Of a DNA stretch of 64,000 nucleotides, positions 39,660-40,197 are shown piece by piece. This stretch comes from Roseiflexus sp. RS-1. GTDB taxonomy: Bacteria > Chloroflexota > Chloroflexia > Chloroflexales > Roseiflexaceae. The notes under the pieces are model-generated. The model did not search any database, was not told the origin of the DNA, and saw nothing but the letters and a program-made list of their open reading frames with translations. A program made the position numbers and the translations under genes. The number at the start of each line of letters is the position of its first letter. The stretch's first letter is position 1. The stretch lies in contig NC_009523.1 of assembly GCF_000016665.1 (NCBI RefSeq), positions 2,480,001 to 2,544,000 on the forward strand, given 5' to 3'.

Positions 39660-39775
39660 ATGGTCTTTGAGTAAATAATCCGCTACAGCCCGCGCAGGCG
39701 GGCTTCGCCCTGGCTAGCCGAGGGCTTCAGCCCCACGGCTAGCGCGGGATAGCGGAATAAATTCTCAATCTCCAT
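39660..39775 (+). mobile_element. 116-bp MITE-like element
   Basis: Starts ATGGTCTTTGAGTAAATAAT and ends AAATTCTCAATCTCCAT, imperfect terminal inverted repeats of about 26 bases sharing ATGG..TGAG..CCGCTA. The middle carries GCCCGCGCAGGCGGGC and GGGCTTCAGCCC hairpins. Same length as the copies at 22082 and 63501. Confidence 0.8.
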
Positions 39776-39836
39776 AAGCCCTGGCTGAGGTCGGGCAAGC
39801 CCTGCGGGCTGGATCAACCCGGCACCCCCCGGCATA

Positions 39837-40018
39837 GGTTCAAGGGCGGACAGAAAATATGTGCGATGCACACTTCCGGCAGCATCAGAACGCCATGGTG
39901 GGCAAGTTTGGAACCCGCCCCTGCCAGTGCGGTGCGCAGGGGTGGACAGAATAGCAGATTGCGCACTGCAATGCCAGAAAACGTGTCTTTGCTCAAATGT
40001 TCTGTCTGCCCTTAAACC
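39837..40018. mobile_element. 182-bp MITE with 6-bp target duplication
   Basis: The left end GGTTCAAGGGCGGACAGAA and the right end TTCTGTCTGCCCTTAAACC are inverted repeats (17 of 19), with weaker pairing continuing to about 50 bases. The sequence GGCATA flanks both sides directly (39831-39836 and 40019-40024), a clean 6-base target-site duplication. No transposase is encoded, so it would need a transposase in trans. A second copy was not found in this window. Confidence 0.75.
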
Positions 40019-40082
40019 GGCATAGGGAAGGGTGACGGACACGCCAGCCCTGCAGGGGCTTCCACGCGCTCAGGGAGGGCTT

Positions 40083-40197
40083 ATGGTCTTTGAGTACATA
40101 ATCCGCCATAGCCCGCGCAGGCGGGCTTTGCATTCCATAGCCGGGGGCTTCAGCCCCACGGCAAGGGCGTATACCAGATGTATTTCTCAATCTCCAT
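40083..40197 (+). mobile_element. 115-bp MITE-like element
   Basis: ATGGTCTTTGAGTACATAAT to TTTCTCAATCTCCAT, with the same inner hairpins as the copy at 39660 and in the same orientation. Confidence 0.8.

What the first reader, a model, noticed from the sequence alone, without database searches (positions are those of the whole stretch)
39831..40024. Second MITE family with 6-bp target duplication
182 bases with ends GGTTCAAGGGCGGACAGAA and TTCTGTCTGCCCTTAAACC and direct GGCATA on both sides. A full set of hallmarks of non-autonomous transposition.
Basis: seen in the sequence. Interest (0 to 1): 0.55.

Follow-up and report, generated by a model that had tools for sequence, protein, structure and literature searches.

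The report
Short transposon copy inside palindromic repeat
This is a short DNA element without genes of its own that jumped into the middle of a mirror-image repeat, most likely with the help of the cut-and-paste enzyme of a related jumping gene; it duplicated ten bases of the target, not six, and is an ordinary if well-documented example.

Summary
Comparing copies in this and related genomes shows that the outer GG/CC belong to the target. The element is 178 bp (39839-40016), ends TTCAAGGGCGGACAGAA / TTCTGTCTGCCCTTAAA; the target duplication is 10 bp (CCGGCATAGG, 39829-39838 and 40017-40026). Three other full-length copies and fragments lie in the genome, eight copies in a congener. The host site is a dispersed repeat, uninterrupted at 24 or more other places. 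Transposase genes with the same ends exist: two broken ones in this genome, intact ones in Herpetosiphon and a Kouleothrix MAG. The intact ones show IS4-family catalytic motifs and mostly 10-11 bp duplications. MITE and IS copies tend to sit where a C-rich arm switches to a G-rich arm, often the tip of a palindrome such as CCCCTTCTCCC-N-GGGAGAAGGGG. Most of that signal is arm composition; a smaller part is site-specific pairing. Verdict: a non-autonomous relic of an IS4-like element, a new member of a known kind. The target preference, with target-like palindromes inside related MITEs, is the only mildly novel part.

The parts
39829..39838 (.). left copy of the 10-bp target duplication, CCGGCATAGG
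39839..39855 (+). left terminal inverted repeat TTCAAGGGCGGACAGAA
39839..40016 (+). the MITE itself, 178 bp
   Evidence: boundaries from comparison of 31 insertions; copies
39918..39942 (.). internal palindrome CCCCTG-N13-CAGGGG, roughly where related MITEs carry CCCCTCTCC...GGAGAGGGG
   Evidence: read; interiors of other MITEs
39938..39951 (+). internal sequence resembling a terminal repeat (AGGGGTGGACAGAA)
40000..40016 (-). right terminal inverted repeat, TTTAAGGGCAGACAGAA on the - strand
40017..40026 (.). right copy of the 10-bp target duplication, CCGGCATAGG
39688..40166 (.). dispersed palindromic host repeat interrupted by the MITE (limits are those of the query used)
   Evidence: uninterrupted copies elsewhere in the genome

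Best explanation
The element is a 178-bp MITE: the transposase-binding ends of an IS4-like insertion sequence without its gene. A DDE transposase supplied in trans would bind the 17-nt inverted ends, cut the element out and join it to a target with cuts staggered by 10 bp (one helical turn), leaving a 10-bp direct repeat. The target here was the middle of an imperfect palindrome (CACCCCCC-GGCATA-GGGAAGGGTG) inside a dispersed repeat. Shown: the ends, the 10-bp duplication, the copies, the empty paralogues, and transposase genes between the same ends. Inferred: that such a transposase moved this copy, and that it works by cut and paste. No intact cognate gene was found in this genome, so this copy is probably immobile now.
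For: Copies: 10 DNA matches in the own genome, four of them full length (this one; 306542, 93%; 1251688, 76%; 1989496, 73%), two being ends of a broken IS (1278623/1281587) and four fragments. Congener G001 has 8 near-full-length copies at 86-93%. Duplication: of 31 insertions examined, 17 have an exact and 1 a one-mismatch 10-bp repeat in register; left/right agreement is 28 of 31 at the first duplicated base and 2 of 31 just outside, 26 of 31 at the last base and 1 of 31 just beyond; three more have an exact 11-bp repeat. Empty sites: the host repeat runs uninterrupted across the junction at 24-25 other places. Partner: C1:84162-85543 has the same ends around a transposase with PF01609 at E 7.7e-7. 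Related IS in Herpetosiphon and a Kouleothrix MAG (44 and 52% aligned identity to the latter for the G042 and own-genome proteins) have, in the two intact ones examined, D(64)D(100-101)E and Y(2)R(3)E(6)K.
Against: Both own-genome transposase copies with these ends are broken: 84162-85543 has A in place of the catalytic E and an apparent C-terminal frameshift and no duplication; 1278623-1281644 is split by another insertion and has a stop. No intact cognate was found in this genome and no transposition was observed. Of the 31 insertions nine show no clear duplication and one only 8 bp. Beyond the TIR the MITE resembles the IS ends only weakly (at most 8 of 15 positions), so origin by simple internal deletion of a known IS is not shown.
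Confidence: 0.92

Rival explanations
1. A MITE with a true 6-bp target duplication and ends GGTT...AACC, moved by a transposase of a family with 5-6 bp duplications such as IS1634.
For: In the window copy alone both readings give the same empty site, so one copy cannot decide.
Against: In other copies the outer two bases follow the target and the direct repeat is 10 bp in register; the transposase relatives have the YREK motif and match IS4 models far better than IS1634.
Confidence: 0.03
2. The MITE is mobilised by the sibling IS of this genome (8 copies, about 1.38 kb, open reading frames, ends TTGAAAGGGGGG), which shares the palindromic target sites.
For: The sibling has open frames and is about 30% identical to the cognate transposase, matches the same IS4 model and lies at the same kind of palindrome with 11-bp repeats (exact in 4 of 8).
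Against: Its terminal repeat (TTGAAAGGGGGGG) differs from TTYAAGGGCGGACAGAA in most of its length.
Confidence: 0.15
3. The repeat is a selected structured RNA or regulatory palindrome rather than a mobile element.
For: Strong fold of the single strand, z -3.5.
Against: The fold is largely the terminal repeats; intact copies have their own target duplications; no Rfam family matches the element itself at the gathering threshold.
Confidence: 0.03

Closest known systems
IS4 family (IS4 family goes genomic, 2008, PMC2266710; passages read)
   Same: About 10-bp duplications, D(60-110)D(100-150)E and Y(2)R(3)E(6)K motifs, TIR within 10-40 bp.
   Different: Ends begin TTTAAGGG or TTCAAGGG, not the CA/CAT/CT/-AATR/YT-AA-YTT signatures tabulated for the subgroups; NCBIfam IS4_2 is the best model but below its curated cut-off (98-125 bits against 152).
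REP-targeting insertion sequences, e.g. ISPsy8 and the IS4 member ISRm22 (Tobes and Pareja 2006, PMC1525189; passages read)
   Same: Insertion into repeated palindromes; ISPsy8 at the symmetry axis of a predicted hairpin.
   Different: Here the sites are several different C-rich/G-rich palindromes rather than one REP consensus, and MITEs as well as IS copies use them.
IS231A, which targets GGG-N5-CCC (target recalled, not read here)
   Same: IS4 family, 10-12 bp duplication, symmetric G/C target arms.
   Different: Here the arms have the opposite polarity, C-rich on the left and G-rich on the right.

Membership tests
MITE | short, terminal inverted repeats, no transposase gene of its own | tested here: met
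   178 bp, 15 of 17 matching end positions; too short for a transposase
MITE | target-site duplication at independent insertions | tested here: met
MITE | multiple copies | tested here: met
MITE | autonomous partner with the same ends | tested here: met
   present but broken in this genome; intact relatives in other genomes; mobilisation itself not testable here
IS4 family (partner element) | target duplication of about one helical turn (about 10 bp) | tested here: met
   11 of 16 G042 IS copies at 0-1 mismatch over 10 bp; 11 bp in G014 and G039
IS4 family (partner element) | D(60-110)D(100-150)E and Y(2)R(3)E(6)K | tested here: met
   met in the G042 and G014 proteins; own-genome copy has A for E
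IS4 family (partner element) | end signature of a named subgroup | tested here: not met
   TTTAAGGGCGGACAG compared with the table in PMC2266710
IS4 family (partner element) | score above the curated cut-off of an IS4 model | tested here: not met
   NF033591 98.1, 106.8 and 124.8 bits against 152; hence filed as IS4-like, outside the named subgroups
IS1634 (5-6 bp duplication) | 5-6 bp duplication | tested here: not met
   10-bp duplication; NF033559 E 0.023 and 0.001 only

The most novel reading that the evidence does not exclude
An IS4-like group in the Chloroflexales integrates by recognising the shape or symmetry of palindromes (cruciform or hairpin tip) rather than a fixed sequence, and its MITEs carry a copy of that kind of palindrome inside, so each MITE brings a new landing site for the next insertion.
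Probability: 0.2. Interest if true: 0.5.

Novelty: new member of a known kind. Interest (0 to 1): 0.27.

Why it matters
It corrects the boundary and the duplication length, which decide the transposase family, and ties an orphan repeat to an IS4-like partner. The shared preference of MITEs, their partner IS and a sibling IS for C-to-G palindromes would help explain why repeats in these genomes pile up inside one another.

Tried and rejected
A 6-bp duplication was rejected by comparing the outer bases across copies. A CRISPR reading of the flanks (two Rfam CRISPR-DR28 hits) was set aside as the palindromic dispersed host repeat, by inference. A solved structure for the transposase: none at a meaningful E-value. 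Strict hairpin recognition was only partly upheld: swapping right arms between 23 distinct sites leaves most of the pairing (mean 7.26 against 8.48 observed; 8 of 2000 swaps reach it), so C-rich/G-rich composition explains most of the stem score. The second set of 16 MITEs showed the preference less sharply (9 of 16 with stem 7 or more). In one search my automatic choice of the G039 reading frame picked a wrong ORF; that row is ignored. Paper searches for MITEs or IS elements in Roseiflexus, Herpetosiphon and Chloroflexus gave nothing relevant (listings only).

Full report
Observation. The window holds GGCATA at 39831-39836 and 40019-40024 around 182 bases with the stated ends. The window is C1:2480001-2544000 of a 5,801,598-bp genome. 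I recall that size as Roseiflexus sp. RS-1, but no call names it.

Copies. A DNA search finds 10 matches in the own genome. Four are full length: this one, 306542-306723 (93%), 1251688-1251869 (76%) and 1989496-1989674 (73%, left target repeat lost). Two matches (1278623, 1281587) are the ends of a broken IS and four are fragments. Among 60 genomes including the own one, 10 have a match. G001 of the same genus has eight matches of 177-182 bases at 86-93%; the other four genomes of the genus have none.

Boundary. With the element taken to start at TTYAA, 17 have an exact and one a single-mismatch 10-bp direct repeat; three more have an exact 11-bp repeat and one an 8-bp repeat; nine have none that is clear. 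The five G042 copies without a repeat may be recombinants between copies, which I did not test. Agreement between the two flanks starts and stops sharply at the 10-bp limits. The GG...CC read as ends in the finding occurs in 7 of 31. The element is therefore 39839-40016 and the duplication CCGGCATAGG.

Empty site. Joining the flanks and searching the own genome gave 146 matches to a dispersed host repeat. In the loci fetched from that search, 28 alignment rows cross the junction without interruption; mapped back, they are 25 places, two of which have identical sequence and might be one, so 24-25. At the orthologous place G001 lacks the whole repeat cluster: about 108 bp lie where the window has about 908 bp. 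Empty sites alone cannot separate 6 from 10 bp; only the comparison of copies does.

Partner. A scan for the ends found a pair 1,382 bp apart at 84162-85543 around a DDE_Tnp_1 transposase, with A where relatives have the catalytic E, and an apparent C-terminal frameshift. A second copy at 1278623-1281644 has a stop and is split by another insertion whose 320-aa ORF looks like an IS110-type transposase (name recalled). Relatives with open frames: 16 copies in G042 and one in G014, a Kouleothrix MAG. The G042 and G014 proteins show D(64)D(100-101)E and Y(2)R(3)E(6)K. NCBIfam's best model is IS4_2, below its cut-off. In 301 genomes of the phylum, 7 match the profile at E 1e-40 or better.

Wider MITE family. 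A pattern of both ends 130-160 bp apart hit 5 of 60 genomes, with no hit of the reversed control in any. The 16 MITEs of G037, G043 and G049 have other interiors; 6 have an exact and 2 a one-mismatch 10-bp repeat, one has 11 bp, and 7 have none by these criteria. All 16 hold an internal palindrome of stem score 9-14, mostly CCCCTCTCC...GGAGAGGGG; the window copy has a weaker one at 39918-39942.

Target. Of 18 insertions of the first set with a 10-bp repeat (0-1 mismatch), 17 have a stem score of 7 or more within 4 nt of the duplication's centre (background 9% of 12,760 window positions); the exception is one G001 copy. Eleven of the 18 are in G042, mostly in similar repeats. The window site scores 7, at p 0.038 against its own shuffles. 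In the second set 9 of 16 reach 7 (background 8.6% of 4,957). Pooling the 30 insertions with a clear repeat, of 47 examined (17 dropped for lack of one), 24 reach 7. After collapsing similar sites to 23, 17 reach 7 against 13.0 with right arms swapped between sites (33 of 2000 swaps reach 17), and the mean is 8.48 against 7.26 (8 of 2000). The duplication begins with C in 18 of 19 and ends with G in 17 of 19 distinct 10-bp sites. So the target is a C-rich to G-rich switch, with a modest further signal of true pairing.

Sibling. Eight other IS4-like elements in the own genome, with ends TTGAAAGGGGGG, sit at CCCCTTCT-CCCCGTGTGGG-AGAAGGGG and similar palindromes; 4 of 8 have an exact 11-bp repeat. 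The one protein of these that I scanned matches the IS4_2 model at E 3.5e-19, below its cut-off.

Literature. REP palindromes as IS targets, insertion at a hairpin's symmetry axis, and an IS4 member among them are known (PMC1525189, passages). IS4 hallmarks are from PMC2266710 (passages). No paper on this element was found in the searches (listings). I therefore file the element as a new member of a known kind.

Noticed in passing
window 39688-40166: The flanks belong to a dispersed palindromic repeat with 146 matches in the genome; two Rfam CRISPR-DR28 hits in it look like false positives.
   Followed up: partly
L037, L038, L042-L047 (own genome): Eight copies (94-98% identical) of an IS4-like element with ends TTGAAAGGGGGG, all at the tip of the same kind of palindrome, with 11-bp repeats exact in 4 of 8.
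   Followed up: partly
L130:420-879 (G050): A MITE-like element whose internal palindrome is interrupted by 118-bp head-to-tail units, each starting with the same terminal repeat, as if MITEs nest in their own palindrome.
   Followed up: no
L027:1124-4145 (own genome 1278623-1281644): An IS with the MITE's ends, split by a further insertion carrying a 320-aa ORF that looks like an IS110-type transposase.
   Followed up: partly
L036:1386-2614 (own genome): A third transposase-bearing element with ends ACYACCGTACAGAA and a short direct repeat containing CATCTTGAT.
   Followed up: no
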